Source: Tubulanus polymorphus (lineage: Eukaryota; Nemertea; Palaeonemertea; Tubulaniformes; Tubulanidae). From it: a DNA stretch of 64,000 bases. Shown one piece after another: positions 6,390 through 64,000 of the stretch; positions within the stretch are counted from its first letter, which is position 1; the number at the start of each line of letters is the position of its first letter. The notes below the pieces were generated by a model. The model saw only the letters and a list, made by a program, of their open reading frames with translations. It was not told the origin of the DNA and searched no databases. The position numbers and the translations under genes were made by a program. The stretch is from assembly GCF_964204645.1 (NCBI RefSeq), contig NC_134034.1, positions 9,173,414-9,237,413 on the forward strand, given 5' to 3'.

Positions 6390-7620
6390 TATAATAGATA
6401 TGCTCGTATAACATTCAGGGGAAGGCTTTTTTAAACCTGGTGTGTCGCTGAGATTGGGGAATGTTTCCATTACCTTCGTCGTGTCACAGATGGCCTGCGC
6501 CAAATTTCCTGCAACTACCCCTGCGTCTTTCATGAGGGTCCCTCTAGTGTACGTTTCGAAACTGCTGACCAACCTATGTGAGTCATGATGTCATCTTTCC
6601 CCGTAGAACAGTTACCCAACATGAGTGTGAGGGCGCATGCTGACCTGAAGCTATGCGGTGTCTCACCTTCGTCTATCCCTAAAGTCCTTAAATAAAATCT
6701 TAATCTTTCGTAAACTGCGCTGTAGGTCAGTGGGCGTTTCAATACGACCCCGGCTTCCGTGACTGGTCCGAAGAGATAACCTACGGATAAGTCAATCCCG
6801 TCTTTTCCCATCCAGTCAAAGTACTGCTGTAGCGCCAGGACTGGGCAAAGTACTTTATCCGGGCACCTTTTGATACTAAATGTATTTGTGGCGTCCCCTC
6901 TTAATGTTTTGCCGAAAGATCGGTCGATAACTAGGCCTGAACCATCGTTTAGTTTCTTGACCTCCTGTGATTTTAACCATGTCAGGTCCCCAGCCCTGTC
7001 CCCTCCAAAACATTGTAATTTAAAGAACGCGTCATCTCTGAAAGCCGTGGATTGTTCCCGAAGACTAGTATCTTCCCTCGATTTCTGGCCCTTCAAATAG
7101 TTCGCAATTCGGCGAAACTTTTCGCTGAAGAGAGGTTTTGCATTCTTTTTCATGACGTGTGACTTTGCCTGCTCTTCTCGGATGTATTTTAGGTATTGTG
7201 TTACTTCTGGGGACTAAGCTGGGTTCCCCGATTGGCAGGACTCGTCCCAGCGCAAACCCCTCCCGGCAAGATCAAATATCACGGTCAGGCTTCTAACGAT
7301 ATTTTCCACTGAACTGGTTGCCATACGAGTGTCGCAGGGGCAGATGCCAGCGTCCCGAGTCACCAGGTATTCGCAATTTGTTTTGTGGATTTTTGTCTTG
7401 CCATCTCGGTCTTTCCACACCAGGAACCTTCTAACCTCTAGAGGAGTAGCTGTTTCGATGCATCTTTTTTGGGGGAGTCCTGCTAAGAATTTGGAAAACC
7501 CGATCGAAGGGAGTTCCTGGCTTTATACACTTTACTTTCCTTTGAGGATCTCTCAATTTCAGCAAGCCTGGCGTCGATGAGGGATACTGGCACCCACGGA
7601 AACAGTTCCTACAATATACG
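6390..7620 (-). pseudogene. Tyrosine recombinase of a DIRS-like retrotransposon
   Basis: This would encode the recombinase that inserts the circular cDNA of a DIRS-like retrotransposon. The recombinase domain shows GGDRAGDL with the first catalytic Arg (about 7000-7020), HSFRSA with the His-x-x-Arg pair, THIGW, and TYTR with the Tyr nucleophile (about 6545). The gene is broken: the Tyr lies in a different frame from THIGW (shift near 6560), an in-frame TAG sits at 7214-7216, and the N-terminal part beyond about 7430 is in a third frame. It lies 3' of the reverse transcriptase, the expected gag-RT-RNase H-recombinase order. Family membership is clear from the motifs; DIRS versus Ngaro is not resolved. 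Confidence 0.8.
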
Positions 7621-7734
7621 AAATGGAGACTAGTTCGTATTGGATAGTGTATTATTTTAATTATGGTATATTCTTCATATATCATAATAAATGTCCCTTA
7701 TTTCATACAGAGTTTTACAAAGTTGTAGTTTCAT

Positions 7735-9901: not shown

Positions 9902-10227
9902 AGAAATAAAGGGGGTTTATTAATGAATATAACCATGTGCGACCTCGCCAAGCAGGTCCCGATCCAAGCTGGCGTGAATACAATCCACTAGAGAATCAGT
10001 GTCTCTTGAGCTTACACCGGAAACTGCATACCCTTATGAAAATAGGTGGGGTCCACAAACAGTTATGAAAAAGTTATGTTTTGCTTTATACACTGTGAAA
10101 ATAAATGGAGAAAAATAATTGGTTTTCTACACCTCTATAAAGGGGGTCTGTATAGGTTCCATAGAGGTGAATTATTATAACGACCGGGCCGTTTTTCTTC
10201 TTCCGAGGTGGAATTTTTCTTGGGGAC

Positions 10228-10694
10228 TTATAAACATTTGGCCATAATTTTCATCACCTTCCCTGTTTCAGATCCCCCAAGGCTTGCTAAACAAAAATTC
10301 CCTATATCGATTTTATCTTTGTTCTTTTCCGCCTGGCAGAATACCGCTGCATATAAACCGGCATCTTTATGATTATCTTCCCGGGCAGTGCTTGATAGAT
10401 CCTCTAATGCTGCGATCAGTAAACTATCTGCAGCGCTTCCCTGATAAGATAGGGATTGTACCCTTTTAAGAGCTGCCTTTACCCTGTGTCGCATTGTTTC
10501 GCTCCAGTTCTTCTAACTTTTCTTTAACTACCTTTAATTCCGATTCGTCATCAGGCTTTGACTCCGTCGGGGTTCGTTTTCTTTTCCCGGGAGTTGCGGG
10601 TTGTTGGTTCTGGCTCTCCGCAGCTGAGGTACTTGGTTGTGATTGGTCGTTAATTGTACCAGCGCTGGTTTCTGCACTACTATTGGTGGTCTAA
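10228..10694 (-). pseudogene. Gag-like ORF of the DIRS-like element, broken
   Basis: Two frames joined by a shift near 10490 give a Ser/Thr/Pro-rich start, a basic patch (GKRKRTP), a charged helix likely to form a coiled coil (about 10500-10560), and an Ala/Leu-rich domain (88 codons, 10228-10494). It lies directly upstream of the reverse transcriptase on the same strand, where gag-like proteins sit in these elements. The assignment rests on position and composition, not on a sequence motif. Confidence 0.45.
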
Positions 10695-11028
10695 AATACA
10701 AATATAGTGTCAGATTTAGTTTGATTTCAGTATAATTTACTGAAGTATCCTAGAGTAAAGTACATGGAATTGAGTATAGATTAATTAATTTACTAACTTA
10801 GTATCTCCAATTCGTAGTTAAGTTCACATACAGAAGAATAATGTGACATACTTCACCGATGCATACGTACGGGACGGGATATCCCGGATAACGCGGGTGT
10901 GGTTTCCCAGTTTTCTATGATATTTACATTTTACATCCACAATCTATATTTATCAGATTATGCACTATAACTTTTGTTGTGATCATCATTATTGATCCAC
11001 ACCCGGGACAAAATGTTCGCTCTTTAAT

Positions 11029-11391
11029 TTAAAAATCTATGTTACTGACGTTATGCCATACCTTTTTTCCCCTTAATTGTTTGCCTTCTGGGGCTCCAAA
11101 ATCATTAGCGTATACGATGCAGTGGTGGTTCGCCTTCCTGGCCTTTTCTTCAGTAATTGGACGCCCTGCAAGGTCCATGATCTCGGAAAGGGATTCATCA
11201 GTAACTTTCTTGAATATAACCGTCGCTTCCTGTAAGCTCAACTGTTCTGTACTATCTTTTGAGTGTCTCGCCATAGGTGATGTCGTTGGTGCGTCATTCC
11301 GAAGGGCTCTCACAACCGGCAGTATGCTACGTCCTATCAAGGTGTGTCCTTTTTCAAGGTTGCCATCTGGAAAGTATAAGACTGAAGGCAT
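11029..11391 (-). CDS. Unrecognised ORF, 120 codons, DIRS-like element region
   Basis: An open frame on the strand of the retrotransposon genes, 5' of the gag-like ORF. The protein is mixed helical and charged, with no zinc knuckle, membrane segment or known motif. It could be the first exon of a gag protein or the remnant of an upstream insertion. Function is not known. Confidence 0.35.
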   Translation of the reverse strand: MPSVLYFPDGNLEKGHTLIGRSILPVVRALRNDAPTTSPMARHSKDSTEQLSLQEATVIFKKVTDESLSEIMDLAGRPITEEKARKANHHCIVYANDFGAPEGKQLRGKKVWHNVSNIDF

Positions 11392-12009
11392 GACAAATCG
11401 TTACTACAGTTATAGATATTGAATTTATCCTCAAAAGTAATTATTCAGAATAAATCGTCTAAAATTGTCAAGTGACTGTCCAAAAGTAATTAACTATGAC
11501 TACAATGAATTTTGGTCGGATATTCTGCATTAATTATCATATTCATGGTTAACCTTTACTACAAAGTGTGAGCAAATTATAAGTATGCTATGTACAAAAA
11601 AATCTTACTTCAATCTTGTTCCCTGAAGACCCGAGTTACAATACTGTCGTCGACGTATGTACCTGCAGTGAATGTGATCTGGAAACCATGAAGTTTTATA
11701 TACCCCATGCTACAACTATGAACTGGAAAGATTGGTCTTTTCTATTTCGGAATGCCTCTTTTGAATATCTATTTGTATTTCTATTACCACGGAAACATAT
11801 ATGTCCTGTGTGCACCCGGCCTTGAAGGCTTAAAAGTGTCAATGTATTAAAGGATAGTGAAATAGCTGTTTCCAAGCGTCCTTACATATATTATTTCTAC
11901 ATGACTCCAATCCAATAGAAAATTGTGTGGTTGGGCACATTTCAAAACAGAATTCCAGGCCCCGATTCTTGGGTTAAAATTTGTAAATTACACGAGACTT
12001 ACCTGTAAG

Positions 12010-12860
12010 TTGAAGTGGAATTCAGATTCTGTTTTCTCCCTTTCAAGGGTTCTATAATGTAGTTTCCCATATTCTACCCCAGGGAGTGCCGACACAAGAG
12101 AACCAATTACCTCCGCCACTGATCTAATAGTTTGCTCTGTTTTTTGGATAGCTAATGCACACATTTGCCTGATTTTTTCCCCTTCTGTGTGAGCTTTACT
12201 GACATAGAGATAGAATCGAGAGCAAAACCCAGTGTCTCAATTGAGGTATTAGGTTCCAAGCAAGATTTGACTGGGTGGACAACAAATCCAAATTTATTCA
12301 GTAAGTCTACCGTTTCTGGAGTTTCTTGTGCCCTTGGGCTCTAGGGATCGAGTAGTGTGCATCTTTAATATCCAGCGATGCCATGTAGCACCCTGGCCGC
12401 ATCATTTGAATGATGGTTTCAAGCCCCTCCATTTTGAAATGATGGTATTCAATATAGTCGTTAAGTTTAGAGAGGTTAAGAATCATACGGAATTGCCCAT
12501 CTGGCTTCGGTCGTACAAATATGTTTGACAAGAACTCGCCTTGCTCATGGCAGCAAATCTCTAAGACACCTTTAGTCTGCAGTTTAGCAACTTCCGAATC
12601 TATGACGGTTTCTTCTTTATTATTAAATTTAATCCCCTTAGGGGCTCTACACATGGGTAGGCCTGTTAATTCAAGTTTATAGCCGTTTTTGATGATTTCT
12701 AGAATAAAGGGGTCCGAAGTGATATTCCGCCAATTTTCTAGGCACTTTGTAACGCCACCTGCTTTAAATGCCTGAACGTTCTTTACTGCCATTTGCAAGG
12801 TGTTCTTGACGAACGAGTCACAAGAGTCTGATATTTCACTTACCAAGGGTTTTATACCTA
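12010..12860 (-). pseudogene. Reverse transcriptase remnant of a second DIRS-like element
   Basis: The frame at 12307-12846 has FVRPKPDGQFRMILNL and the palm motif ASLDIKDAHYSIP of a DIRS-1-type reverse transcriptase. After about 12300 the sequence jumps to a later part of the same protein (ETLGFALDSISM, followed by ALPGVEYGKLHYR), so the YxDD region is deleted. It overlaps the gag frame upstream. The motifs differ clearly from the RT at 7.7-9.9 kb, so this is a separate family member, truncated near 12000. Confidence 0.75.
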
Positions 12861-13972
12861 CTGGTTGTCCACTTTGGGCTTCTTTGACATTTTCTGCTAA
12901 TAATGCTGGGGTTTCCCCCGTTTTCCTTTCTGATACGGATAGCGTTGTTGTTGGTATCCGCTGCCGCGATAGTACTGCGGGTTGCCGTATTGTGTGTTGT
13001 TGTACTGACCGTTGTACTGGGGCCCCTGGCCCCGACCTCGCCAGTTTTTTGAGTCAACAGTTTTTGTTGGTTCTGCTGGGAAGGTATAGCTGGCTTCCTT
13101 ACTAATACCTCCTTACTAATATCATCCGACTGTTTGACGTCTTTCAACAGTTTTGCCAGATCATCCCCAAAAAGCCACTTCGTGACTTCGACGTTCTCGT
13201 CACAGAGTCTAGAGGCGTATTGTCTTTTCAACACTGGCCTAATTAATTCTCTCCTTCTCAGGGATAATTCATGGACGCTATGTCCTATCAATCCCAGACA
13301 GTCGGTCAGCATAGGTATAACGGATGCGACATCTTTCCCATTAACCAACTGGTCAGTAGCTTGAGCTACTGCCGAGCCTGCTTTAATAAGAACGGCCTGG
13401 TTTGCTGATGCCGCGAGGTCCGAGCCCCTCTTGTACTTATCTAATAATTGCCAGATTGCGGCATTGACCCTTGGCACTATCATGTTGCTACAGTTTTCGG
13501 GTCTTAAGTATTCTTTATTTTTCACTGTTTCCTTGGGCATACTCTTGCCGAATCTCCGATTCGCGACCTTGGCCACTTTAGGTTCAATTGACGGCCCATA
13601 GGCCTCGTCGTCAGATCCTTGATCATCGATACTATCGAGAAGTGTTTGTTTGTCTGTGGGAGCTTGGTGTAATTTAGCCACCAGGTCCCTCACATCCGCA
13701 TCATCCTCGTCACTTTGAGGTTCTCTCTCCTCCTCTGACATGTCGTGGTGGGGTTTTACCCCTGAGTTTGGCTTTCGCCTTTTGTTTGGATTTACCCAAG
13801 AATCACCTTTCGGTGGTTTTTGCGCATCTAGCGCCTGTTTAATCGCTTCCGCTATGAAGCCTTTCAGGTCATTATTAAGACCGGAGGAGGACCCAGGTCC
13901 TACCTCATCCACCGTTGTCGACTTGTCGAGAGTTAACTCGTCACCAGATCTTTGATCACCAGCCGTATTCAT
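12836..13972 (-). CDS. Gag protein of the second DIRS-like element
   Basis: A 379-codon frame from an ATG at 13972; a start at 14047 in the same frame adds a hydrophobic stretch that looks like untranslated leader. The protein has an acidic Ser-rich N-terminal half (about residues 60-130) and an Ala/Leu-rich core containing NCSNMIVPRVNAAIWQLL and RGSDLAASANQAVL, a pattern seen in DIRS gag-like proteins. The C-terminus runs out of frame where the reverse transcriptase begins. It would be the RNA-packaging protein. Confidence 0.65.
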   Translation of the reverse strand: MNTAGDQRSGDELTLDKSTTVDEVGPGSSSGLNNDLKGFIAEAIKQALDAQKPPKGDSWVNPNKRRKPNSGVKPHHDMSEEEREPQSDEDDADVRDLVAKLHQAPTDKQTLLDSIDDQGSDDEAYGPSIEPKVAKVANRRFGKSMPKETVKNKEYLRPENCSNMIVPRVNAAIWQLLDKYKRGSDLAASANQAVLIKAGSAVAQATDQLVNGKDVASVIPMLTDCLGLIGHSVHELSLRRRELIRPVLKRQYASRLCDENVEVTKWLFGDDLAKLLKDVKQSDDISKEVLVRKPAIPSQQNQQKLLTQKTGEVGARGPSTTVSTTTHNTATRSTIAAADTNNNAIRIRKENGGNPSIISRKCQRSPKWTTSRYKTLGK

Positions 13973-14289
13973 GATAATGGTGGGAACAAAGTTCAGAATA
14001 ACAATTATATCCAACGAAAATAAAAGTAATCTAAGCGATATACACAATAATATCCAATCGTCAACGTTTGTTTATAATCCAAGAGTCAAAGTTTTTTTAA
14101 ATAAATCCGATTAAATAGAATATGAGTAAAAGCACACTGTGATATGGGTAAGTATACACAAAATAGCGCATTAACACGAAAGTGCGTGTAACCGATCTAC
14201 AAGATAGAAGCACACTGATCTACAGATGGCTTCACGCATCTCATGTTACACGGAGTGAGGAGATTGATGGGTAGATAGAATAGACAACG

Positions 14290-26158: not shown

Positions 26159-29100
26159 TTATCCACCCAATACCTCTGGGTACACAATGTTTTTGATTTG
26201 AGCTGGATTTGAAGAGTAAACAAAGAGTGAAGATGGTGTGCCTACACGTGATAGGGCAACATACAACATGCCATGGCTGAAGACGGGGTTGTCTAGATCA
26301 ATGCCAACTGCAGTGAATGTCTGTCCTTGTGCTTTATTTATTGTCATTGCAAAGCACGGTCTAACAGGGAACTGGAGCCGTCTAAACTGGAAGGGAAGGT
26401 CACTGTCAGATGGTATAAGAGGAATGCGAGGGATGAACGTTGTGTGACCTTTAGATGGACCAGTCAAAATGATTGCCTCAATAACATTTGGGTGAAGATG
26501 TTTCAATACACATCGAGTTCCATTGGTTATGTGGGGAGGGTTTAGGGAGCGCAAAACGATGATTGGTGCACCTACTTTCAAATGAAGTGTGTGTGGTGGA
26601 AGTCCTGGAATATCAAGGGTATTCAGGAATTCAACAGGGAAATGTATTGCCTCATCAGGTGTGAGTGTACTATCCACCGACTTGTAAGTGTGCATGTTAC
26701 CAGGGAAGTCAGACATTATCTTGAAGTTGATGGTATTCACATTTTCATTCAGGGGGCAAAGAATTGTTCGCTCAGCTAACCACGTATGATTTGAGTATTG
26801 TGTCTGCAGATTAGGATACACAGCATTGATCATTTCGTCAGTACTACCAACTGTGTGGATAGTATCAGGCAATTTAATGAAATCAGGTTGTTCTATAATA
26901 GGATAGGTTCCATTACCCACATCCATAAGAAACTGCGCGAAACACTCGGCATCGCGATCATTGTGGAGGTGTACACGCATGTTGGTTTTCAAATGGTGAA
27001 CTGTAACATTCGCCCATAAACTCGATTTTTTCAATGAGGCATCAATTATGTTTGCCTTTGTCCCATTCCTTACAACGGGAAGAATCTGACGGAAATCCCC
27101 ACAGAGCAATGTAGGTATTCCTCCCATTGGTAATTCATTTGAACGGATGTCCTGCAAGCTGCGGTTGAGTGTTTCAAAAACCACTCTGTGGAGCATTGGT
27201 GCCTCATCGACAATGATAGCAGATGCATCTTTGATGACAGAAGCTAGGGCAGACTGCATGGGTATATTGCACATTGGCTTGTCTTGTCGATGTACATCTA
27301 ACGGTACTTTAAATGTTGAGTGGACTGTTTTTCCACCGGCTAAGAGTGTTGCTTTTATTCCACTGGAAGCTGTTGCCAACACGATGTTGCCTTGGGAGCG
27401 AATAAATGCAAGTAGCAAATTCAACAGATAGGTTTTGCCAGTTCCTCCAGGTGCATCAAGGAAAATAATTCCATGGGAGCCTGATGAAAGTAAAGAAATG
27501 AAGCTGTCGAAAACCTTTCCTTGCTCATCTGTCAGATTTTCTATGTTCTGTTGATAGATATGTAATTGTTCATCACGGTCATATGCAATCTGCGCAGCAT
27601 AATCTCTTGAGAGCTGCTGTGAAGGTGCTTCAGTAGGCATGGGTAGACCATAGGTATCAAGTGGTTTTCCCGAAATTTGAAGGACACGATTCGAAATGTC
27701 AATCAGAGCCATGCCATATATGCTATTGCTATATGGCATGTCTTCTTTGGCACTGTTTATTCTTTGTTCATGGAGGAAGTCTTCTGATAATGAGTCCCGA
27801 TGGGCTTGCCAAAGGCCTAGTGGGTTTGACGGTTCACATGATGTCAAAATTACGGCAAACAGCAAGCGCAGAACACGGGGTGATTTACATATAGCAGCTT
27901 CAGTTAATGCAAGCAGGAGGTGGTCATCATTCTCAATTAGACCCTGTTGTAGGCAAGCTTCACGATATGAATCGAATGTCTGTCCATCTGCAGTCCGAAC
28001 AGCAGCAAAAGATGTTGGTCCTTTGACATAGTGCAGCAAAAGTCGCAAGAAGTAGCATTCAGATAGTTTAGGACTAACAGTGTAAACACGTCCTATGCAG
28101 TCTGTAGAGAATATTCCAGGGTGACAGGAGTGGGGTGTCCCACGTTTTCTTCTGGTCCATGTTTTTGTTGCTTTTTGCCAAACATAATACGTCGGTAGCT
28201 CTGCATAAAGCAGGGTTTGTGCAAATGTGTCACGTTGGCATAATGAGAAGAATTCAGTCAAAGTGGTTTTGGGTGGCTCATTGAGTGCCTCTTGCATGGC
28301 AGTGCTTTCAGTGAAGTACACTCGCTGTTCATTCTCTAAATGTACTGCTAGTTGAACCACTGGTGGGTAGTGTTCATGCATTGGAAACTCAAATAAACGC
28401 CATGCTGCTTCTGTGCTCCCCACATACCTACCATGTTGAAAGTTAGACACTTCGTCAGTTGCAACAGCAAAAACTGCTTGATCAGCTCCTTTTGTTATGT
28501 ACTTAAAAACATATTTAATGCTTTTGATAGACATACACAACTCTACATTGGCATGTGCATCAATCTGCCTTATTAACCATGGGTTATAAGGAACAAGACA
28601 TCGGTTATCAATTTCATATGTCTGCCTTTTGCCATTAATTGTTACAGGTATTGTAGCTGTATGACCCCCACACTCTGGTGAAGGGCGTCTGTATTTTGGA
28701 TAACCATCATTCCCCAATTCTGTATGTTCTAGGAAAGGCTTTGGAAAGCTTTTTGAACAGCTACTGTTGATCATACATGGGGAATGCCGATTTATGTTAC
28801 CGCAAGGCCCATGAACCATATTCTTGGTAACGATTTTATGAAGTTCTGGTTCAGAATGTGGACATGGAATAGTGGCCCATACAACTTCATCAATTTTCTT
28901 GTTTCCCTGAGTTAACCATAGAAGTATGTGCGCATGGGGCAAGCCTCGTTTCTGGTATTCTATGGAATACAACCAAGCTGCCAAAGTACCAAAGCAACCG
29001 GACTTGAAAGCATTGAGCAAAGAGCGGAGCTTGAGTCTGAAAACTCTGGCTACAATGTCCGGTCTATCCTGGGGTGACATATTGGGTGGTAGTTGTGATG

Positions 29101-30373
29101 TTATTTCTGACCATTTAGGATTTGTTGTAATTGTGATGAACAGGTCAGGACGGCCAAATTTTTGGACATATGCCATAGCGTCCATCTGCCTCACATGCAT
29201 ATAACGTGGTCCTCCTGTAAATGTTGCAGGCAGTATAACTTTAGTACCTACTGTTGATGGATTGTGGTCATTGGTGATAAGGGAATCTCTAAGATCTTCA
29301 TATGTATTGGCTCGAAGCGACTTCTGTTCACGGCGTATAAAATTCAATCCTTCACTCTCCACTTTACAATACATATCAACTAAATATTGTTGGAACAGTC
29401 ACCTACCTAAGAGAATATAATTGATATCCTCGCGAATCATAAGGTGGTATGAATAAAACTGTAGCTGAGAGACTTTTTTATTCTGGGGCGTGCGGATGTA
29501 AAGATGATATGCATCAGAACCGTGTGGCAGTAGCAAAGGATACTGCAGGGCATCGTATGACCGATGTAACTCAGAGATATGTTTCAAAGGGCCACTGCGC
29601 TGTGAGATTACAATATCTCGATGGTGAGCTGGTTCATTGGGCATCAAAATTGCTATTTCAGAGCAAGTTGGGGCATTAAACCTACGGGTGTGCTCACCAG
29701 GAGGTTTCCTATTCTCCTCAATGATAATGCTTAGATTTTCACTATTATCGTTTATGAGTTCTCTGGCACATTTGAAATCTTTAATATAAGGATTATACAT
29801 ATCAAGTTCATCAGTCAGTTTATCGATGATTTGGGGCTGTAAATTTGACCCTATTTGATGACGACGCCCACGCTGCTCTGCTTCATTATCCATGAAGTAT
29901 ACCTGAAGGAACTGTGGTTGACAGTTATCATCAGGATACATGGCGCCAATTCTATGACAAACTTGACCCTGAATAGTGAATGTAGGGTTCCAGCCAGTAA
30001 TTGCACGGAGACGATGGCCAAAACTGGTCATCTGGAAGATATTGTTGAATGACCTTATGTTATTCAAAAAGTGGTTTGCCTCACTATTACCCCCACTGAA
30101 TAAATTTGCCTAATATGGTGGTGGCTCTGGGAATAAAGGCAAGGATATTTTGCCACCCATACAACACAATGAAGGAGGTTCACCAATAAATTTTTTGGCA
30201 CCACAGAAAGAACAAATAATGTCCAATGTCGCAACATCTGTAATGGATTCAAATGAATGTCTTTCATATTGTAGTGCTGGTGGTGTCGGATCCACTACTA
30301 TTGGTGGTGTAGACGGGTGCTGGACTCTTTGCTTCGCTCGTCTTCCAATTTGCCGTCTCCTAGGGGTGGGCAT
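26159..30373 (-). pseudogene. RepHel: HUH replication initiator plus Pif1-type helicase
   Basis: A single reading frame of 1,405 codons encodes the Helitron transposase, interrupted by only two stops, TAG at 30110-30112 and TGA at 29399-29401. Domains in order: a Cys-rich N-terminus (CSFCGAKKF with a following CC, about 30150-30220), the Helitron-like N-terminal domain, the HUH motif GLPHAHILLWL (about 28920-28960), the two-Tyr motif KYVFKYITKGAD (about 28485-28520), then the helicase with GGTGKT (Walker A, about 27433-27453), VDEAP (Walker B), GDFRQILP and, near the end, TINKAQGQT and YVALSR. It would nick and unwind DNA for rolling-circle transposition. The near-intact frame suggests a young copy. 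The start at 30373 (MPTPRRRQ) fits the family. Confidence 0.9.
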
Positions 30374-36969: not shown

Positions 36970-39291
36970 ATTGAATATGTTGAATTCTTATTTTATTCAA
37001 ATTTTCAATACTTGCCGTAGGTAAGTTAAATCGACTACGATGGGCCAACACTATGTCTTCCTGTTCAGCAGTTTTCTCGTAGACATCAGTAAGAGTACCT
37101 TTACAGGCTTGCAAAATTATGAATATTAACCTTTTGAAACATGCCAGACATCAAACCAGTGTTTAATATCGGGTAAGTCTTCGCAAATGTATTTTCTTAT
37201 TTGGATGTGCCTGTCAGTCACGAGTGAGGAGATTTTCATGCCATTCGTTTTCAAAAATTCAATGGACCGCTTGAGCCCTTCGAGTTCCATCGCATTAGAA
37301 TTCGTGACTTCACTGGACTGCAAATAAAACAAAACATCTACATCTATCTTGTATATCAAACCCCACTTGAGAAATACTGGTGGATGGGAAGTTAATAATT
37401 CACCTGGACAAGCTGAACGTCTAGAACTCTGTTTGTTTCCAAGTCCCTTAGAGAATACGAACCAAACTTGGCGGTATGTCCTGGAGAGCAACAGCGGGCA
37501 TCTCCCCCAAGCGTGAGATTTTTTGATTTAAGTTCATTAAACATGGACTGTTGTTTTGATTTCCACAGTTTCGAGATTGCAGGGATGAGATACGCAGTCT
37601 GCATCACTGAATATGCTCTCTGCTTAATCATGCAAATATTGAAATTCGCACACATCTTAAGAAATCGTGCGGGCCAAATACCACTGAAGTAAATGGCGGC
37701 TGTCATTGAAAGATTCCCCAGCGGCATCCTTCCTTCTAGGTTGAGTAAACCAAGTTTTCTGATATTTTTCAGGGCCTTTACATCGAGTTTCTACACAGAG
37801 ACAAGATCCTAAGACACGCTTCTTGACGATTTCACATGAAGCCAGACAGATGGTACATATTTGAAAAAGAGTCTGGAGATTTTATGTACTTACTCCTCAC
37901 CACCGACAATCCAAGTGGGATCATTTCTAAAATCATCAGCATCCATGTAATCATCATCGTCGTCGTCGTCGTCATCGTCATCTTCACCCACCAAAAGCAG
38001 ACACTGAACACCGACATCCATTGTTCGCGGAGTTGCCTGACATTGTTGGGATGATTGTGGCTGGTTTTATGCTACACTGAATGCTCGCCATTCTCCGTGC
38101 CTAATCCAAAGGAAAAATATCACAAATAAATCGAAGTATTGATAGGGAAGTAGTGTACAAACACAAAAACACACTTACTATATAAATCTGAGTCGATTGA
38201 GTGCGAAAAGGCAGGGCTTTGTCATCAACATTCAACATTGTTGTCAATGTTGATGTAGATTTTTGATCGTTAGGCCTGAAAATATCTGGGCTGTTAGGTC
38301 GTGACCGTTTGGCAGGATTCACCGGAGTGCTTGTTTGTATGTCTGAAAACGAAGGACCCTCCTCCTCCTCGACAGTTGAGGAAACAGGAATCGTTACGTT
38401 ATCCGTCACATCTTCGTTTCTGTCCATTTCATCCTCATTAACATTTTCGGGGAAAAGTTCCTTCATCAGCTATAAAAACATATATTAAATCCTATATTAA
38501 ATCATTGTCGCTTAAAACAAATTCGATTGATGGGTGGGTAGGCCTAATGAAATGACTACTGACTGTCAACGAATGTCAAATGAATCACACAATTTTCATC
38601 GGTAAAACCCTCTTCAGTAACCAATAAACACTATATAACAGGCCGTTTCTGTAGTGTAGTCTACAAAAACGTAGTTTGTAACGACAGAACCCGGTGAATT
38701 CGCAATAATCGTCGGTAAATATAACCCGGAAACAATTAGCAGTGTGGGTTTTTCCAGCTGTGTATCACGATCGAGTTCGAGTCCCACACTATCATTTCCA
38801 AACAGACTGACTACTGCGGATTATTTTCACAGGTTATTTGTTTTTAAAAGGGTTATAGAATCACTAGAGACAAATGTAAATAGAAGAAACTGGAAAAACT
38901 CATTGAATTACGAAAGTTAATTTTCCCCAATTACCGATGCGCGTTCACGTTTAGCTCTCGACGTTGTTTTCCTTTTGTTTTTCGGCTTCTGAATTCCACC
39001 TGGTATAGGATTCCTAGTAAAAATCGTCGGTATAGAACCCAGTTTTAGCCTGCGTTGTCCAGGCACAAAGCCAATCGAAGTGGCTATCGTCGATGGAACG
39101 ATAAAACACTCTTTGTCGAAGTGCTCGCAGCACAGTCGAGAATATGGAGTCGGCTTCCATGAATTCTCTCGTCCACACGCTTTCGTCCACAAACTTGCTA
39201 AAAATTTATCTTTAGGAAACGTGTGAAACGATTCCACGCTCGGAACGCTATAGGAATGCTTCTTACAATTCCCGGCGACACAATAAACCAT
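36701..39291 (-). CDS. Kolobok transposase with THAP zinc finger, multi-exon
   Basis: The first exon (about 38938-39291, ATG at 39291) encodes a THAP domain: CVAGNC, then FHTFPKD, LWTKACGRE, WKPTPYSRLCCEHF. Later exons: an acidic/Ser-rich linker (about 38182-38468), an Asp run (about 37895-38060, from a GTC/ATC microsatellite), the transposase core with LTLGGDARCCSPGHTAKFGSY (about 37430-37727), VTNSNAMELEGLKRS, SLVTDRHIQIRKY and KHWFDVWHVSKG (about 37130-37327), and a C-terminal region to about 36701. These are the conserved blocks of Kolobok transposases. The exons lack obvious stops, so the gene may still be open. THAP binds the element ends; the core cuts and joins DNA at TTAA. Confidence 0.75.
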
Positions 39292-39363
39292 TATGAAGCC
39301 GTAAAACGTAACAAAAGAAGAATAAAATAACCGTATAATAGTAGAACGAGTGTAGAACGAGTG

Positions 39364-39393
39364 TGCACTTCCGAATCAAATGACGTCACTCGC
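39364..39393 (-). promoter_or_regulatory. Subterminal promoter block with CRE and ETS sites (right)
   Basis: The inverted twin of 35842-35871: TGACGTCA at 39381-39388 and, on the minus strand, CGGAAGT. It lies about 75 bases upstream of the transposase ATG at 39291. Confidence 0.65.
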
Positions 39394-53326: not shown

Positions 53327-53737
53327 TCACATCACTTTTTCGCTTAATATTAATTTTATTTGAAAATATGTATGAAATCTAAAAAGTGATAACATCAATG
53401 GTAAACTTGGTTTGTTTAAATGATCATTCCAACTAATTCCATATCCTGTTGTTGCGCAATAAACAGAAAAATTTAATTGGTTCTGCCAATACTTCATATT
53501 AGATTTTAATAACCATTGTTTTGCCTCATTTAAATTTTTGAAATTAATTGTATACACATAAAATTTATTCTCCATCTTTACATGAAAATTATTACTTTCA
53601 GTAACATAAATATATAAATCAATTAATGAATTTAAAACTTCATTTCTATATGTAATATCTTTATTAAAATCTATTGCTGGAATATTATATTTAATTGATT
53701 TATTATATTGGAAAGCTTTTGGAAAACTATCTGCCAT
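53327..53737 (-). pseudogene. Polinton major capsid protein, N-terminal fragment
   Basis: 136 codons from ATG at 53737. FSVYCATTGYGISWNDHL (about residues 88-105) and SLFRFHTYFQIKLIL resemble the N-terminal region of Polinton major capsid proteins, the double jelly-roll subunit of a predicted virion. The frame is cut at 53331, where CACTA-like DNA starts, leaving about a fifth of the expected protein. It is the last of six genes read on the minus strand. The similarity is from memory and moderate. Confidence 0.55.
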
Positions 53738-53753
53738 TTATATAATTAAAAAA

Positions 53754-54188
53754 TTAATAATTTATTAATTCTTTTAATAATTTATCTTGTTCTTCAACTG
53801 TTATATGACCATTTAAACTTATTATATAATCTAGTGTATTCTTTAATTTATTAATTTCTTTTATATTAGTTTTAATTTTTTCTTTATTACTTTTTATATT
53901 TAATTTTGAACTTATACCAGTTAAAACACTTGGACTTAATCCTAATACACCAATTGATATAGCTAAAGGTGTTAATGGACTGAATATTGCTAGAAATGTT
54001 ATTACAGAACTAATTGTAACCGAACCACTAATAATAAGATAATATATAATTTTACTTTTTAAATATTTATTCTTTTTTATCTTTAAGTCACTTTCAAATT
54101 CTAATATTTGTTTTTCTAAATTTATTTTTAATTTAGTTTTATTTATATCATGAGGAATAATATCAATACTATCAACTTTATCTTCCAT
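53754..54188 (-). CDS. Polinton small protein with two membrane segments
   Basis: 144 codons. Two adjacent hydrophobic segments (residues about 50-70 and 73-92) sit between charged helices rich in Lys, Glu, Asn and Leu that are likely coiled coils. Two-helix membrane proteins of this size are common in Polintons and virophages, but this one matches no named family. It lies 16 bases upstream of the capsid gene start, in the same run of genes. Confidence 0.55.
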   Translation of the reverse strand: MEDKVDSIDIIPHDINKTKLKINLEKQILEFESDLKIKKNKYLKSKIIYYLIISGSVTISSVITFLAIFSPLTPLAISIGVLGLSPSVLTGISSKLNIKSNKEKIKTNIKEINKLKNTLDYIISLNGHITVEEQDKLLKELINY

Positions 54189-55235: not shown

Positions 55236-55994
55236 TTACTCTTTACATCTTATAACTAATTCATAAATTACAGGAAAGTTATTCAAATCAATTAAATAAC
55301 CATTATGATTTTTTATTTCTAATTTAAAATTATTGAAATGTGGAATACAAGGTTTAAAATCACATTCAGTTAAATTATAATTTATTTGCGTTCCAAATTG
55401 TTTAACATTTTTTAATGGTAAAATATTTAATATACTAGAATTACAAATTGTATCTTTAGTTGCTTCAAATGTTTTTGTTGGGTCAATTAAATTGCAATAA
55501 ATATAAAAATGTGTAAAAGGTATTAAGTTTGATCTACCTTCTGAGTATGCTGTAACAATATCTGGGTTAATTCCTAACAGTTTACCTAAAGGTTTTCTTA
55601 CTGTGAATTTAAATTGTTCGTCATTAGCTAACCTAATCTTTATTTTATTAGAACTATCACTTTTTAAAATTGTAATACTAAATCCGGAATCACTTCCTAA
55701 TTTAGCTCGAGCTTTTCTATTAATTTCTTGTGCTAATGTATCTAAATTATATAATCCTGGTTTTAAATATATAAAAAACCATTTATTCCTTTTTTTGTAA
55801 AAGATTGAAAAAATTAAATGTTCTAGACTTTTATCCGATATATTGTAAAATGAGTTACATAAACTTATATTTACTAATTTTAAATCAACACAATTATTTA
55901 ATTCTCTATCTAATTGAACTATTAAATTATGTGATTTATAATTTGTAAGTTTTCTAGAATCAACAAATATTCTGTATTCTTTTAATTCTACCAT
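55236..55994 (-). CDS. Polinton minor capsid (penton-type) protein
   Basis: 252 codons, intact. The N-terminal half has the alternating beta pattern of a jelly roll (REYRIFVDSRK-type opening, LKPGLYNLDTLAQEIN). The second half has HFYIYCNLIDP and ends with FPVIYELVIRC. These features fit the Polinton minor capsid protein, expected at the fivefold vertices of the capsid. It heads the minus-strand run, 69 bases from the divergent zinc-finger gene. It is the best preserved gene of this Polinton. Confidence 0.7.
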   Translation of the reverse strand: MVELKEYRIFVDSRKLTNYKSHNLIVQLDRELNNCVDLKLVNISLCNSFYNISDKSLEHLIFSIFYKKRNKWFFIYLKPGLYNLDTLAQEINRKARAKLGSDSGFSITILKSDSSNKIKIRLANDEQFKFTVRKPLGKLLGINPDIVTAYSEGRSNLIPFTHFYIYCNLIDPTKTFEATKDTICNSSILNILPLKNVKQFGTQINYNLTECDFKPCIPHFNNFKLEIKNHNGYLIDLNNFPVIYELVIRCKE

Positions 55995-56062
55995 TATTTA
56001 TAACATAAAAAAATTACCGCTCATCACTAAAAATAAATTTTAATAAAATTTTTCCTTAATAA
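55995..56062. promoter_or_regulatory. Divergent promoter region between Polinton genes
   Basis: 68 bases, very AT-rich (AATAAAATTTTT), between the divergent starts of the penton-type gene (55994, -) and the zinc-finger gene (56063, +). Inferred from arrangement only. Confidence 0.4.
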
Positions 56063-56833: not shown

Positions 56834-57715
56834 TTAATGATTTTTTAATGACAACCTGGTTGTAGATTTGCATTTTCTTAATAAAGTTTCACTATGATTA
56901 TTCGAATGGCATATCCCACCACGTGACTTCAAAAGCATCAGTGCCTCCAGAGTATCTGGAGCAAGGCAAGAACGAAAATCTGTCTTATTTTTACGGACGG
57001 TACTGAACACGCGTTCACAGCAGGCATTGGCCACTGGTATCAGAAGAATTATCATCATGAGTCTGGGAAGCACATTAAATCTAAAAAAGATGACAGACAA
57101 GATGCTCATTGATAAGAATCTAATATATATGACATAAAGTGTTACACTAGACATGAATGAGCCTATGTACCTTTGAGATCCAGTACAATCAATAAGCTGT
57201 GCCATCAGTTTCCACTGTTCTTCGGCTGGTCTATGAACAGGACCAGAGCTATAATCTTTAGCTATTTGACTGTCAGGAAACATTTTGCGAGCCAATTCCC
57301 CGACATGGTCAGCTGCACTAATAGGAATATTGTGCTCGACTAAGAACTCACAGAACATCGTTTCAGCACGAATAACAGATAGGTCTTCTTTTTTCACGAA
57401 AAATGATGTTATATTCTTAGATTTATTCAAAACTTTGGCAGCTTCCGAATGTTTACTTGTGGCCATGTGTCTATGGATATCGTCGACGCCACCGTAGGCT
57501 ACCGTAAAATCGCTTTTACAGTAGGCGCAGAAGGCATGATGTTTGGACTTACTACTCTTTTCAATACACGGATATTTCATTGAATATTCCTCCCGAAACT
57601 TTTGCATTCTACGCTTTTTCTTTGCAGGGCAAGCCGCTTTAGTATTCAGCTCCGAAACATCAGAATCAGACGATTCTGAATCAGATCCTACCGAAATCAA
57701 AAGGCCGGTCGCCAT
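56834..57715 (-). CDS. hAT transposase, internally deleted
   Basis: 293 codons. The N-terminal half has a BED/TTF-type zinc finger (HHAFCAYCKSDFTVAYGGVDD, then HRHMATSKHSEA) after a Ser/Asp-rich leader and a basic patch (KKKRRMQKF). The end has ANACCERVFSTVRKNKTDFR, the dimerisation region of hAT transposases. Between them, 30 hydrophobic codons (about residues 192-222) look like an unspliced intron. The catalytic middle is missing, so this protein may bind ends but cannot cut. ATG at 57715 opens the only long frame. Confidence 0.75.
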   Translation of the reverse strand: MATGLLISVGSDSESSDSDVSELNTKAACPAKKKRRMQKFREEYSMKYPCIEKSSKSKHHAFCAYCKSDFTVAYGGVDDIHRHMATSKHSEAAKVLNKSKNITSFFVKKEDLSVIRAETMFCEFLVEHNIPISAADHVGELARKMFPDSQIAKDYSSGPVHRPAEEQWKLMAQLIDCTGSQRYIGSFMSSVTLYVIYIRFLSMSILSVIFFRFNVLPRLMMIILLIPVANACCERVFSTVRKNKTDFRSCLAPDTLEALMLLKSRGGICHSNNHSETLLRKCKSTTRLSLKNH

Positions 57716-57733
57716 TTTGTCAACAAACTTCTG

Positions 57734-57789
57734 ACACCGTACTAGTGCGCCATCTTCACTTCAATGAAGGTGGCGCACTAGTACGGTGT
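57734..57789. repeat. Near-perfect hairpin next to the hAT transposase start
   Basis: Two 25-base arms, ACACCGTACTAGTGCGCCAT on the left and its inverted form on the right, differ at one position and have a loop of about 6 bases. It begins 19 bases upstream of the ATG at 57715, so it lies in the 5' leader. Confidence 0.85.
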
Positions 57790-58528
57790 AAGAGAAATTA
57801 GATAAGGACCGGCGGGGTCCTCGGGGATGGGTCTGACTATTTCAGATGGCTGGGAGTCACCTTCATTTCGGTCAACGAATTATACATTTAGACTTCACCT
57901 ACGATGTAACGTAGCACAATACACTGGGTTCGAATCCCGTAAATCGTTCCAGGAACTCGGTCCCTCAGCGCAATTCGTTCAAACAAAATTCCCATTTTTT
58001 GTCTGAATGAAATTCAATTTAATGACCAATAGAAACTTATTTCCAATCAGGAGATCTGCTAACCAAAAGGAAATTCCTTAAAAAGTCCTCGTAAATTACA
58101 TTCAACTTGAACAAAAATATAAACTAAAACCATATATATGTACCATACAAACTTTTTTATTTCACAAATTTCTAAATTTGAATAAACACCACATTGTTCT
58201 GATATAAATCAAATTACACAATTTTAAAATTTGAATATACATGTACATAGTTCTGATTGACTTGGAAATTTGAAAATTGGATTACAACACGGCCTTACAG
58301 CATTTTAATAGTGCATACGGTTCAGATGATGTTAGGTGACATTGAGTACAATATGGTGAATATTACAAGTCGTTGATATACAAATATGGTGATTGACAAA
58401 CATTTCTCTACAACGATCGGGTTACTAAGATATAAAAAATTATTATGTGTAAAAAGTTAAAAAGCAAACCAAAATGGCCAAAGTGTGCAGAAACCTGTTG
58501 CCGAAGTGTGCAGAAAATAAATGTTATC

Positions 58529-59517: not shown

Positions 59518-59854
59518 TTTAGGTACGTAGGTAAAGTCTAAATGTATAATTTGCAGACCGAAATGAAGGTGACTCCCAGCCATCTGAAATAGTCAGACCC
59601 CTCGGGGATGAACAAATGAAGATCGTCGATCATCGGGCCAAACTCCACCCTCAACTTACAAGTTTGATTGAGAGAAAATGAGGAAAAACGAAGTAAATTG
59701 CTTTAAAAAGACATTTTGTCAATCCGTAATATATCAATTTTTTCCGTACTCTCTGGTGAAAATATCCGTAATGATTTTTCAAAAAACGGAACCCCGTATT
59801 TTGTCACGATTTTCCGGAACTGTTACGGAAAAATCAGAACGGTTGGCAGCTCTG

Positions 59855-60812
59855 CATATAGATAAAATTTCTAATTAATTTGAAACTGAATTCAATGAAA
59901 GAAAAAATAGTTTATTAGAAAAAATAAAATATGAGAAAACGTTACCAGATAATAAAGAAACAGTTGAAAAGTTAGAAAAACAATATAATGAATTAACAAG
60001 AAAAACATATTATTGTAAATATTGTAAATTGATTATTACAACAAGTAATTCAAATCTACATAATAGAACAATAAAACATAAAGAAAACGTAAGAAAATAC
60101 CAGGAGCTTAATGAAGATTTATTACCAATAAATTATAAACGAAAATGTCCACAATGTAGTTATGCGACCTTAAGGCAAGAAGGTACTGTGTTATTTTGTA
60201 ATGAATGTGGATGGCAAAAGAATTTATGGGGTGAAGAAAAAACGAGATTTTCTCATAGAACCAAAATTAAATAATCTTGATGAAATTTTTAAAATATTTT
60301 CTATAGAAGATCATACACCAGAATATAAGCAATGGCTTGAAAAAATGAAAATAATAGAAAATGAAAATGGTGAAATAACTAAAAAAGATATTATAAAAAC
60401 AATTATTCCATCAACATTTAACACAAAACAAAAGAAAATGTATTTATATTTATTATTTAACGATTATTATGAAAAACCGAAATTAACAGAAGAAGATATG
60501 GAAAAGATAAAAAAAATATTCAAACAAATATTAATGTATCATTTGGAAAATAGAATAACAGATTCAATTAATTATGAATTCTTTTTAAATAAGATTGTAA
60601 ATTATTTAAACATAGATATTATAATTCCATTTGACGAATTAACAAACAAAAAGAAACAAAGAGAGCGAGATGAAATGTGGTACAAGATAGAACTATATTT
60701 AAATGAGAAAAATGAAATGGAAGAACCTAAACAAATTATACAAGAACAATTAAATGAAAATGAAGAAGCCAATAGTGATTTCGAGTATGATGATATTGAT
60801 TTTATGTTTTAA
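59855..60812 (+). pseudogene. Polinton zinc-finger/zinc-ribbon protein, 3' part
   Basis: After the hAT insertion the frame continues through one TAA (about 59873), a charged helix, another finger (YYCKYCKL with two His) and a zinc ribbon, CPQCSYATLRQEGTVLFCNECGW. A shift near 60235 leads into a 190-codon helical domain (60240-60812) ending in an acidic tail (EEANSDFEYDDIDFMF). A ribbon followed by helices and a conserved-looking RERDEMWYKIE segment recalls viral late transcription factors of the VLTF3 type, but this is a weak impression. The stop overlaps the stop of the convergent polymerase gene. Confidence 0.55.
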
Positions 60813-63800
60813 TGGCCATAAGGTAATGTTTTTATACCATCATCTAAAATATGCCTTTTATCATCAAATGGATTTAAACTAGTTTTTTCAACTTCATTAA
60901 TGTACATCTCGTGATCTTCTGATCTTAAACAATTCATTTTATGTTTCATTACAATTGATTTATATAAACACTTGAAATTCTATATGTTTATCAACCACAT
61001 GTTTTGTTATTCCTTTTAACTTTTTAGCTTCATGATCTTTTGTTCTATAACTATACATTTTACTTCTTATCCCAACAAATTCAATCATTTCATCACCCCC
61101 TAATTCATCTTTAAATTAACCAGGAATGTTTTTATTATCATTGCTAAATAGTTCATGATCTTTGGGATAATTGCTAAAATCAAAATGATGTTTTAAAGTT
61201 TTTAAGTCTTTTGTTAATTGGAATTAATGGGAACCCAGAATTGAATGTTCCATCATCTGTTGATAAATCATAAACATAGTCAGTTGGGTTATATATTTCA
61301 AATAAATCTTTAACTTCTTCTGTTAACTCATTTTCTACATGGCTTAAATTAAAGCAATTTGGTTTAGATTTAATCAATCCAATATTCATATTAATCCTAA
61401 TGAACTGCATAATATATTCAATCCTGATATAGCAACTTTTCCTTTTTGAGCTAAAGATATTGTTTTGCGGTTTTTGAAACTTTTTGAACCATCTGCAGCA
61501 TAGAATCCAATGAAGAACCATTTTCTTAAATTATTTTTTGCATTTAATACATAATCTGGAACTATCTTTTCTTTTGTTGAAGTATTACTTTTAACTATTG
61601 CATGAATATAGAATTCATCATTATATTTTATAGCAAAATCTTTAGGATTATTTACAAGTATTCTATAAACTGCTGTTGATTTCATAACATCCATGATTTT
61701 AAATGTTTTATTTGGATAAACTTCTTCACAGAATTTCTTAATTCTTTCTAATAATTTTAAGTCTTGATTGCATAAATACCAACAATATTGAGTGCGATTA
61801 ACATAATTATACACACCTGCTGAACCATCACCCATGAAAAATCCTTTGATAAAATATTCTTTTTCTTCTAATGTTTCGGGTTCTATATTATAAATATTAT
61901 CAATAATTTCATCGAATGACATATGATTCATTCTTTGGAAAAATCTTTTATGTAATAATTCATCTCCAATTTCTATATCAGTTGGTTTTATTTCATCGCC
62001 ATTTCGTTTAATTAAACTATGATCTTCTGTAACATCTACAAATCCAAATTTAGTTCTTACTCTATAGATTTTCTTATTTGTTTTATGTCTAATAATATTC
62101 TTTAATTTTTTCCATCCATTTCTTGTCCAAACATCCATTAAACCATTTATTTGTATTAATTCTTTTTCACCATATGAAATATAACATTCATTTTGTTTTG
62201 GATTTATTTCTGAAATTCTTCTTATCAATATTTTATCATTACATTTTTATAATATTGGGGTGTCAGCTGTTACAGAATCAAAATATAATATTTCAATATG
62301 CTTTTCCCCAAAAAGTGGTTGTAAAACATTATAATAAAAATCATACATTAATAATTTTGATACTTCTAAAACAGTTGAACCAATGAATATAGGTTTATCA
62401 AATTTCATTGACGTTCTTTTTAATTTAACTGCTGTTAAATAATCTTCAAATCTTTTATTTCCTAAATGTCTAGGACTTGATTGTAAATGTCTTAATCTTT
62501 CAGAATTATTTACTAATTCAATATCATTTCTATTTCTAATATTTTCACATGTTTTACCATGAAAACTATTGTTCATTAATTTGAAGAAATCTTTTTCAAA
62601 ATCTGTTTTTGATATGGTTCTCTGTTGAGTATTGAAATCTTTTCTTTAATTTCATTCCTTGTTTTAGATAAAATTTTAACATTCTATAATGAACAATATA
62701 ATTGTATTTATTATTTTGAGTAAGTATTAATTTTTCTGTAAAAACATGATCTTTCGGTTTTATTTTCTTCTGGTATTCACTTAAATAACTATCATCTACA
62801 GTTAAATGTTCTGGGCAATAAGGTAAGTTTCTTGTTTTAAACTTTATATTTTCAGGATATTCTAAATCAACTACAAAGAAATAACCAATTGGTGCTTCAT
62901 CTTCTAAACTCATAATTGCGCTTTCCCAATCAGTTTTATCACCATTTTCAACTTCTGTTAATATAAAATTTTTATATGGTTGAGGTTGCATCATTGCCCA
63001 ACCATATAAATTATTGGCGTCAATATATAATAATTTATATTCATCATTTGCTTTAAAATATCTCCCATAACACCACTAATTCCACCTCTAATTGATTTTT
63101 CAAATAATAAAACCATATCTGGTTCTTTTAATAAATCTAATTCTACATTTGTATATTTTAAACCACATTGCCAGGTTAAACCAGGACTAGAGTAGCATTA
63201 ACAAGGATCAACATTAAAATGATTCAAATTAACTTCTCTAAATTTTTCAAATATGTCAGCCAATATCATAACATCTGATTTTAAATATAAATCAACTAAT
63301 TCACCATGATTTTTCATCTTAAAATGGTTCCAAATATTTAATGTTCTATTAAACACTTCGTCTTTCACATACTCCTCTTTTAATTGATCATAAAATTGAT
63401 CTTTTAATAATTCTGTTACATTAAAATCATTGTGTGTTTTATAAAATGAATAAGGAATTGCGCCTTTATATCTCAATAATTTAAAATCTTGTTCATTTGG
63501 ATAATAATATCGAGTTATAACAAAATCATTATCAACTAAACTTTTTGATAAATTATCTAATGAACTTGCTAGAAATCTATAAGAATCTAAAAATCTAATG
63601 CAACCAAATTGAAATGAAATATAATTTTCAGATTTTTTAGCTAATAGTTTAAAATCATATTTTCTTACATTTACACCACTCATAGCATTATATTCTTCTA
63701 TTTCTTGATAAATTGCGCCCAATTTCTTTGATAATTGTTTTATAAATAGATGGGTATCATAGCCTGATAAATTATGAAATAATATTGGTACGAAATTAAC

Positions 63801-64000
63801 TTTCTTAGCTTGTAAATTGCAATCTTCATGAGCAGCTCCACGATATTTTGAATTTAAATGATCATGATCTCTAACTTCTTTATCAAATGAATAAAAACGT
63901 TTTTCACAATAACAACAATGAGTTGCATAATTAAAATCAATTTCATCTTCTTTTGTCATAACTATTCTTTTATTTTTGTTTAATAATTTTGCAAAATCAC
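60809..64000 (-). pseudogene. Polinton protein-primed DNA polymerase B, intein-containing, partial
   Basis: The gene enters from the right edge and ends at TAA 60809-60811. The exonuclease domain has FHNLSGYD (63756-63779) and SDVMILAD (63255-63278). The polymerase domain has DANNLYG (63001-63021, motif A), NNSFHGK (about 62553-62573, motif B) and YFD at about 62277-62285 (first half of motif C). After the intein, the C-terminal region resumes near 61220 (DFSNYPKDHE, ELGGDEMIEFVG) and ends with DDKRHILDDGIKTLPYGH. Breaks: TAA just after VDPC (63198), shifts near 63060, 62600 and 61220, a stop near 61120, and one near 60970. It would replicate the element from a terminal protein. Confidence 0.85.
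61220..62276 (-). pseudogene. Intein with LAGLIDADG homing endonuclease in polymerase B
   Basis: About 350 codons that do not belong to the polymerase split its YxDTDS motif after YFD. The insert starts SVTADTPIL (Ser1 at 62274-62276; splicing block A). VDVTEDHSLI (about 62004-62033) is block B with the T-x-x-H pair. FIKGFFMGDGSAG (about 61820) and FFIGFYAADGSKS (about 61490) are two LAGLIDADG motifs with their acidic residues. YVYDLSTDDGTF (61243-61278) is block F. A normal intein cuts itself out of the precursor and its nuclease spreads it to empty alleles. Here a TAA follows block A (62247-62249), a frameshift lies near 61400, and the C-terminal junction (His-Asn plus the TDS of motif C) is missing, so it is dead. 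Confidence 0.85.

What the first reader, a model, noticed from the sequence alone, without database searches (positions are those of the whole stretch)
61220..62276. An intein in the DNA polymerase of an animal Polinton
Directly visible: intein blocks A, B and F and two LAGLIDADG motifs interrupt a protein-primed polymerase exactly between YFD and the expected TDS of motif C. Established: family-B polymerases of giant viruses carry inteins in this same catalytic motif, and inteins in animal nuclear DNA are very rare. Inference: the mobile polymerase intein entered the Polinton lineage, so selfish elements are nested at the protein level inside a selfish DNA element. I know of no well-described case in metazoan Polintons, but could not search.
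Basis: partly seen in the sequence, partly recalled or inferred. Interest (0 to 1): 0.92.

Follow-up and report, generated by a model that had tools for sequence, protein, structure and literature searches.

The report
Decayed intein in an animal Polinton polymerase
A worn-out copy of a self-splicing protein parasite (an intein) sits inside the copying enzyme of a virus-like jumping element in what looks like an animal genome, and intact relatives show that it belongs to a real, precisely placed and probably mobile family in a place where such parasites were said to be absent.

The parts
63201..63998 (-). Polymerase N-extein piece: Endonuclease-VII-like part followed by the exonuclease-side part of DNA_pol_B_2; runs off the window
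   Evidence: Pfam DNA_pol_B_2 3.5e-08; Endonuclease_7 0.0038, below its cut-off; tblastn of P0146 and P0147
62641..63063 (-). Polymerase N-extein piece in another frame
   Evidence: tblastn HSPs of P0057, P0144, P0146 and P0147 in frame -2
62277..62639 (-). Polymerase N-extein piece ending in YFD of motif C (62285-62277)
   Evidence: tblastn frame -3; 60% identity over 98 residues to P0005
61222..62276 (-). Intein remnant, from Ser1 to the last readable residue before the deleted C-terminal junction
   Evidence: Pfam; 20 protein relatives; comparison with complete inteins
62250..62276 (-). Block A, SVTADTPIL (Ser at position 1); an in-frame stop follows at 62247-62249
   Evidence: sequence
62013..62033 (-). 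Block B, VTEDHSL (TxxH motif)
   Evidence: present in relatives
61821..61838 (-). First LAGLIDADG motif (FMGDGS)
   Evidence: Pfam LAGLIDADG_3, two stretches
61485..61499 (-). Second LAGLIDADG motif (AADGS)
   Evidence: Pfam LAGLIDADG_3 best stretch at residues 242-285
61243..61275 (-). Block F (VYDLSTDDGTF), in a shifted frame after a frameshift near 61.39-61.40 kb
   Evidence: matches P0014 YVYDLSTDDGTFNCGFPL
60951..61217 (-). C-extein piece of the polymerase after the deletion that removed the intein/C-extein junction
   Evidence: tblastn frame -3 of P0057 and P0144
60815..60976 (-). C-terminal end of the polymerase, in a further frame
   Evidence: tblastn frame -1 of P0144 (residues 725-778) and P0057 (483-519)

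Best explanation
The segment is the decayed remnant of a 'pol-c' intein with a LAGLIDADG homing endonuclease, inserted exactly between D and T of motif C (YxD|TDS) in the protein-primed type family B polymerase of a Polinton or very close kin. In intact relatives it would be translated within the polymerase, excise itself by the Ser1 / TxxH / Asn-Thr+1 splicing pathway and restore the catalytic motif YMDTDS, while the endonuclease would cut intein-free polymerase alleles and copy the intein in by homing. Shown by sequence: identity, site, intact open frames, occupied and empty alleles, one clade. Inferred: splicing, cutting and homing activity; homing as the cause of the flank signatures; the Polinton label beyond the polymerase. 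This copy can neither splice nor make endonuclease.
Against: The window copy lacks the C-terminal Asn and +1 Thr. Its own Hint match is below Pfam's cut-off. No splicing or cutting was measured. Hosts of all database relatives are unnamed, and no source calls them Polinton; no second Polinton hallmark gene was found in the window. The polymerase trees are poorly resolved: supported branches force only 2 and 1 changes of occupancy, and in the first tree occupancy was somewhat clustered (8 changes, as low in 14 of 500 shuffles). Intein (47.6%) and polymerase (34-47%) identities between the window and the larger relative clade are similar, which also fits long vertical co-inheritance.
Confidence: 0.95

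Rival explanations
1. The segment is a spliceosomal intron or junk insertion in a polymerase pseudogene that happens to translate.
For: The window copy is broken and A+T-rich (G+C 0.24-0.25).
Against: LAGLIDADG and Hint profiles, 20 protein relatives, relatives open in frame with the polymerase on both sides, intein fold.
Confidence: 0.01
2. The segment is a fixed insertion domain of these polymerases, not a mobile intein.
For: It recurs in many polymerases, e.g. clusters P0002 (55 members) and P0140 (41 members).
Against: Of the 120 closest polymerases listed 108 lack it; the insert carries Ser1, TxxH and N|T ends and splits a catalytic motif.
Confidence: 0.02
3. It is an intein inherited vertically with the polymerase for a long time that no longer homes; empty alleles are losses.
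For: Similar divergence of intein and polymerase between clades; the window clade is separate from the P0146 plus P0002-type clade; one tree shows some clustering of occupancy (8 changes for 10 rows of 113, as low in 14 of 500 shuffles).
Against: A second tree shows no clustering (16 changes for 16 rows of 119, shuffled mean 15.2), though both are poorly resolved; one column of 250, five residues from the site, tracks occupancy; both LAGLIDADG motifs persist in complete relatives.
Confidence: 0.25
4. The window is a contaminating viral or protist sequence and not animal nuclear DNA.
For: Host not named; own assembly could not be searched; pol-c inteins occur in viruses.
Against: A THAP domain (4.8e-15), piggyBac-type, Harbinger-type, Helitron, reverse-transcriptase and hAT open frames lie on the same 64 kb; the polymerase matches DNA_pol_B_2, unlike the PF00136/PF03104 polymerases of L004 and L005.
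Confidence: 0.12
5. The element is not a Polinton but another virus-like element with a protein-primed polymerase (for example an adintovirus-type insertion).
For: No capsid, ATPase, protease or integrase gene was identified in the part that lies in the window.
Against: None decisive; the groups overlap and the intein finding does not depend on the label.
Confidence: 0.15

Closest known systems
pol-c type inteins of archaeal PolB (Thermococci L104, Methanocaldococcus L130, Nitrososphaerota L086, Lokiarchaeota L084)
   Same: Same insertion site (D|S...N|T in motif C) and, in the long ones, the same architecture; the name pol-c is recalled
   Different: Host is a cellular archaeal polymerase; 36-39% identity at best (L084); separate branches
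Polymerase inteins of giant-virus-like and phage contigs (L004, L005, L006 and others)
   Same: Same site; L004 and L005 fall in the joint clade with the Polinton inteins, support 100/99
   Different: The polymerases of L004 and L005 match PF00136/PF03104, not DNA_pol_B_2; no single row is established as sister
PI-PkoII (2cw7), an archaeal intein endonuclease with solved structure
   Different: 537 aa instead of about 347; its insertion site was not compared here
Homing-endonuclease insertions in Polinton polymerases (Jeong et al. 2023, cited in PMC11071308)
   Same: Nuclease domains inserted in Polinton polymerases, interpreted by PMC11071308 as intein invasions (passage seen)
   Different: From recall only, Jeong et al. 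describe HNH and VSR nuclease insertions, not Hint plus LAGLIDADG at motif C; that paper was not held

Membership tests
LAGLIDADG intein | Hint (splicing) domain | tested here: met
LAGLIDADG intein | Two LAGLIDADG motifs | tested here: met
   Both present at 61838-61821 and 61499-61485; LAGLIDADG_3 3.9e-07
LAGLIDADG intein | Ser/Cys at position 1 and TxxH in block B | tested here: met
   SVTADTPIL and VTEDHSL; TEDH in most relatives whose block B was read, TEYH in P0141 and a shortened TDH in P0142
LAGLIDADG intein | C-terminal Asn and Cys/Ser/Thr +1 | tested here: not met
   Deleted in the window copy. In 9 relatives with a readable junction: 7 HN|T, 1 KN|T, 1 HN|A. So: remnant of an intein, not a working one
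pol-c polymerase intein | Insertion between D and T of motif C | tested here: met
   YFD|S in the window; YMD|S...HN|TDS in relatives; YMDTDS in empty relatives
pol-c polymerase intein | Groups with inteins of the same site in a tree | tested here: met
   One clade, joined to L004, L005, L084 and P0019 with 100/99 (98). All rows of the trees were chosen by likeness to this family
Polinton/Maverick | Protein-primed type family B polymerase | tested here: met
   DNA_pol_B_2 3.5e-08.
Polinton/Maverick | Capsid, packaging ATPase, protease and integrase genes | tested here: inconclusive
   ORFs at 53.3-60.8 kb had no such Pfam match; element runs off the window; the 253-aa ORF had no relative in viral contigs and no PDB match
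Polinton/Maverick | Terminal inverted repeats and target-site duplication | not testable with these tools
Animal nuclear genome | Animal-specific sequence in the same contig | tested here: met
   THAP domain 4.8e-15 at 38917-39375; that THAP is animal-specific is recalled. Phylum not determined

The most novel reading that the evidence does not exclude
A selfish protein element drives inside a selfish DNA element: pol-c inteins home between polymerase alleles of Polintons multiplied in nuclear genomes, animals included, leaving a short co-converted flank (Leu to Cys at -5), and the Polinton family answers with a homing-proof polymerase allele (YMDCDS, with 11 near-fixed changes over some 66 residues that start exactly at the insertion site) spread by gene conversion.
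Probability: 0.3. Interest if true: 0.9.

Novelty: new member of a known kind. Interest (0 to 1): 0.72.

Why it matters
A 2018 survey of eukaryotic inteins speaks of their absence from metazoan genomes (PMC5784728, passage seen). A true intein in a transposon of an animal genome would break that rule, puts a homing parasite inside a multicopy mobile element, and offers a natural system in which homing, escape and loss can be followed among many alleles, some occupied and most empty. It also ties the polymerase-intein pool of archaea, phages and large DNA viruses to animal transposons.

Tried and rejected
Donor: single-donor readings were tested by AU on the careful tree. Polinton clade plus L004 p 0.040, plus L084 p 0.034, plus P0019 p 0.069, plus L005 p 0.132. 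None is established. Giant-virus sampling was limited: the viral scan used two peptide patterns and kept 80 of 81 loci. Of the 134 loci fetched I examined the ends in 83, cut inteins from 48, and put 37 into the first tree and 16 into the second.

Host phylum: no Rfam match at gathering score and no tRNA in the window; six requests to search the window's own assembly did not complete. The relatives' hosts are not given by the database.

Other Polinton genes: close relatives of the first polymerase piece, of the 253-aa ORF and of P0146 were sought in viral contigs and none was confirmed.

Occupancy on the polymerase tree: first tree 8 changes for 10 occupied rows of 113, shuffled mean 9.7, as low in 14 of 500; second 16 for 16 of 119, shuffled mean 15.2. 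Supported branches force only 2 and 1, so I do not rest homing on the tree. One independent pair on supported branches, too few for a test. Rows left out: seven without a readable motif and one short; rows with under 170 N-extein residues; also P0001, P0005, P0014 and P0146.

C-extein of occupied against empty TDS-type alleles: 5 and 60 rows, 100 columns, lowest p 0.02.

Literature searches: intein+Polinton 9 papers, intein+adintovirus 2, intein+Maverick 13, intein+metazoa+DNA polymerase+eukaryote+homing endonuclease 18, Polintons+nematode+homing endonuclease 4, two of intein/Polintons/pPolB/protein-primed 56, 15 listed, three of inteins/transposable element/animal genomes/invertebrate 241, 15 listed, three of Polintons/HNH/VSR/nematode since 2023 3. 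Passages only were seen of PMC12220804, PMC11071308, PMC3671162, PMC5718144, PMC5784728, PMC7765530, PMC5874633 and PMC1635734; no whole paper.

Full report
What is there. On the minus strand the window holds a degenerate polymerase gene that enters at 64000 and ends near 60815. tblastn with database relatives shows its pieces in order, in three frames: 63974-63060, 63063-62641, 62639-61401, 61482-61213, 61217-60951 and 60976-60815. The first piece matches DNA_pol_B_2 (3.5e-08) and, weakly, Endonuclease_7. After YFD (62285-62277) lies the insert, 62276-61222. It starts SVTADTPIL, then an in-frame stop, then RHKTNKK (62090-62070), VTEDHSL (62033-62013), FMGDGS (61838-61821), AADGS (61499-61485), a frameshift near 61.39-61.40 kb, and VYDLSTDDGTF (61275-61243). 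Pfam: LAGLIDADG_3 3.9e-07 and Intein_splicing 2.5e-04, the latter below its cut-off. phmmer against solved structures gives PI-PkoII, 6.3e-07, as best of six.

What is broken. Besides the stop and the frameshift, the right-hand junction is deleted: compared with the nearest relative that covers it (P0014, 76% identical over 101 residues) about 40 nt are missing, including the last residues of the intein and the first of the C-extein (my count). The copy cannot splice and cannot make its endonuclease. The polymerase itself has further stops and frameshifts. It is a fossil.

Relatives. A search of about 5.8 billion proteins gave 20 relatives of the insert. Three (P0001, P0005, P0014) are 66-76% identical to the window; the others 45-56%, except P0019 (37%). 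P0002 stands for 55 sequences. P0019 and P0020 do not group with, or look like, the Polinton rows (P0020 was not in a tree). A search with the polymerase part of P0017 gave 6212 proteins, of which the best 120 were listed. Of these 120, 10 carry the intein start at motif C (P0017 among them), 103 match an uninterrupted motif by pattern (75 with T, 28 with C after the D), 5 more are uninterrupted by eye, and 2 do not cover the site. So close relatives differ by a clean presence or absence between D and T of YMDTDS. A third search gave 18 intein-bearing proteins; P0141 to P0144 are open from the polymerase through the whole intein into the C-extein, and P0141, P0144 and P0008 run to an end like that of uninterrupted P0057. 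P0146 is a further lineage (68% to P0023 in the part compared). Of 9 proteins with a readable right junction, 7 read HN|T, P0014 reads KN|T and P0140 (41 members) HN|A.

Place among inteins. A profile scan of viral contigs gave 80 loci, one of archaeal and bacterial genomes 51 loci. I examined the ends in 83 loci. In 55 the right end reads N|T-D-S or N|T-D-G, with D|S at the left in nearly all where it was read. Of the other 28, 18 begin GD|S but their frame ends soon after or no junction was seen (some may be split inteins, as the solved 9hth is), one (L118) begins SD|S, and nine (L031, L036, L057, L059, L067, L083, L085, L101, L105) were not read or look different. In trees the Polinton inteins form one clade: 8 rows of 46, support 99, and 11 rows of 28, support 100/99. 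The next node (98; 100/99) adds L004 (a contig with thymidine kinase beside the polymerase, giant-virus-like by my reading), L005 (a virus contig with a DNA methylase), L084 (Lokiarchaeota) and P0019. The order inside is not resolved, so a giant-virus donor is possible but not shown.

Signs of movement. (1) Over 250 N-extein columns, 19 occupied alleles (from three searches) and 103 empty alleles (all) differ strongly in one only: residue -5 is Leu in 101 of 103 empty and Cys in 15 of 19 occupied alleles, Cys in 1 empty (Fisher 3e-15; next column 0.003). Within the 120 rows alone it is Cys in 8 of 10 occupied. The p value ignores relatedness; the two polymerase trees show weak or no clustering of occupancy and are poorly resolved. 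(2) The 28 YMDC-type alleles differ from the 75 T-type alleles at 11 of 150 C-extein columns with p under 1e-6, all from +0 to +66 after the insertion site, and at one of 383 N-extein columns (-115; the next two, -81 and -113, have p of 3e-06 and 4e-06). The rows were picked by N-extein likeness, which can make the N side look uniform, but not the far C side. A block that starts exactly at the homing site fits repair of a break there, or a selected target-site variant. Both points are inference from protein sequences of unnamed hosts, and they concern the larger clade, not the window's own.

Host and element. The same 64 kb carries a THAP domain (4.8e-15), piggyBac-type (1.7e-49), Harbinger-type (8e-20), Helitron (PIF1 1e-63), reverse transcriptase and hAT matches (the family names for the transposons are partly recalled). 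That set speaks for an animal; the phylum stays open, as the own assembly could not be searched. The name Polinton rests on the polymerase; no second hallmark gene was identified in the part of the element that lies in the window.

Literature. Green et al. [quoted passage not shown] PMC5874633 says inteins are absent in multicellular organisms (passage). PMC11071308 (passage) says Polinton polymerases contain diverse homing endonuclease domains at different positions, citing Jeong et al. 2023, and suggests intein invasions; Jeong et al. was not held. In the eight searches listed under Tried and rejected I saw no description of a Hint plus LAGLIDADG intein at motif C of a Polinton polymerase; the library lacks most subscription papers.

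Verdict. It did not see that the copy is dead, and the donor it assumed is open. As a molecule it is a new member of a known kind (pol-c inteins) in a new kind of host.

Noticed in passing
polymerase relatives (for example P0025, P0028, P0034, P0040): 28 of 103 uninterrupted alleles read YMDC- instead of YMDT-, with a block of near-fixed differences from +0 to +66 that starts exactly at the intein insertion site.
   Followed up: partly
occupied polymerase relatives (P0017, P0021-P0024, P0027 and others): Cys at -5 of the insertion site in 15 of 19 occupied alleles, Leu in 101 of 103 empty ones; the only strongly associated column of 250.
   Followed up: partly
P0140 (41-member cluster): A complete intein followed by ADS instead of TDS: the +1 Thr is replaced, so this multiplied copy probably cannot splice normally.
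   Followed up: no
window 56834-57760 and 57826-57903 / 59526-59603: hAT dimerisation domain fragment and a pair of 78-nt inverted repeats, 94% complementary, within the element region: probably nested insertions.
   Followed up: no
window 55236-55997 (-), 53754-54188 (-), 53327-53737 (-): ORFs that may be further genes of the element (the 253-aa one looks like a minor capsid protein from recall only); no informative Pfam match, and no PDB or viral-contig relative for the 253-aa one.
   Followed up: partly
window 59879-60812 (+): Two overlapping open frames, the first with zf-U1 and zinc-ribbon-like matches, convergent with the polymerase; perhaps one broken gene of the element.
   Followed up: no
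window 26159-30109 (-): A large Helitron: a 1079-aa open frame with Helitron_like_N and PIF1 helicase, preceded by a 236-aa frame.
   Followed up: no
window 6530-14071 (-): Pieces of an element with reverse transcriptase (RVT_1 2.5e-10) and a recombinase-like frame at 6530-7213, DIRS-like from recall.
   Followed up: no
L003 5821-6297 (same contig as L052): A phage-like polymerase with a 159-aa mini-intein at the same motif C site; too short to hold a LAGLIDADG domain.
   Followed up: no
L028, L032, L035, L037-L039, L041, L043, L047, L050, L051, L056, L060, L065, L066, L120: Polymerase frames that enter an intein at GD|SF or GD|SV and end some 135-150 residues after the start of the matched block: perhaps split polymerase inteins in phage-like contigs (and one Bacteroidales MAG).
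   Followed up: no
L084 5001-5777: A Lokiarchaeota contig carries a polymerase intein at the same site that groups near the Polinton inteins.
   Followed up: partly
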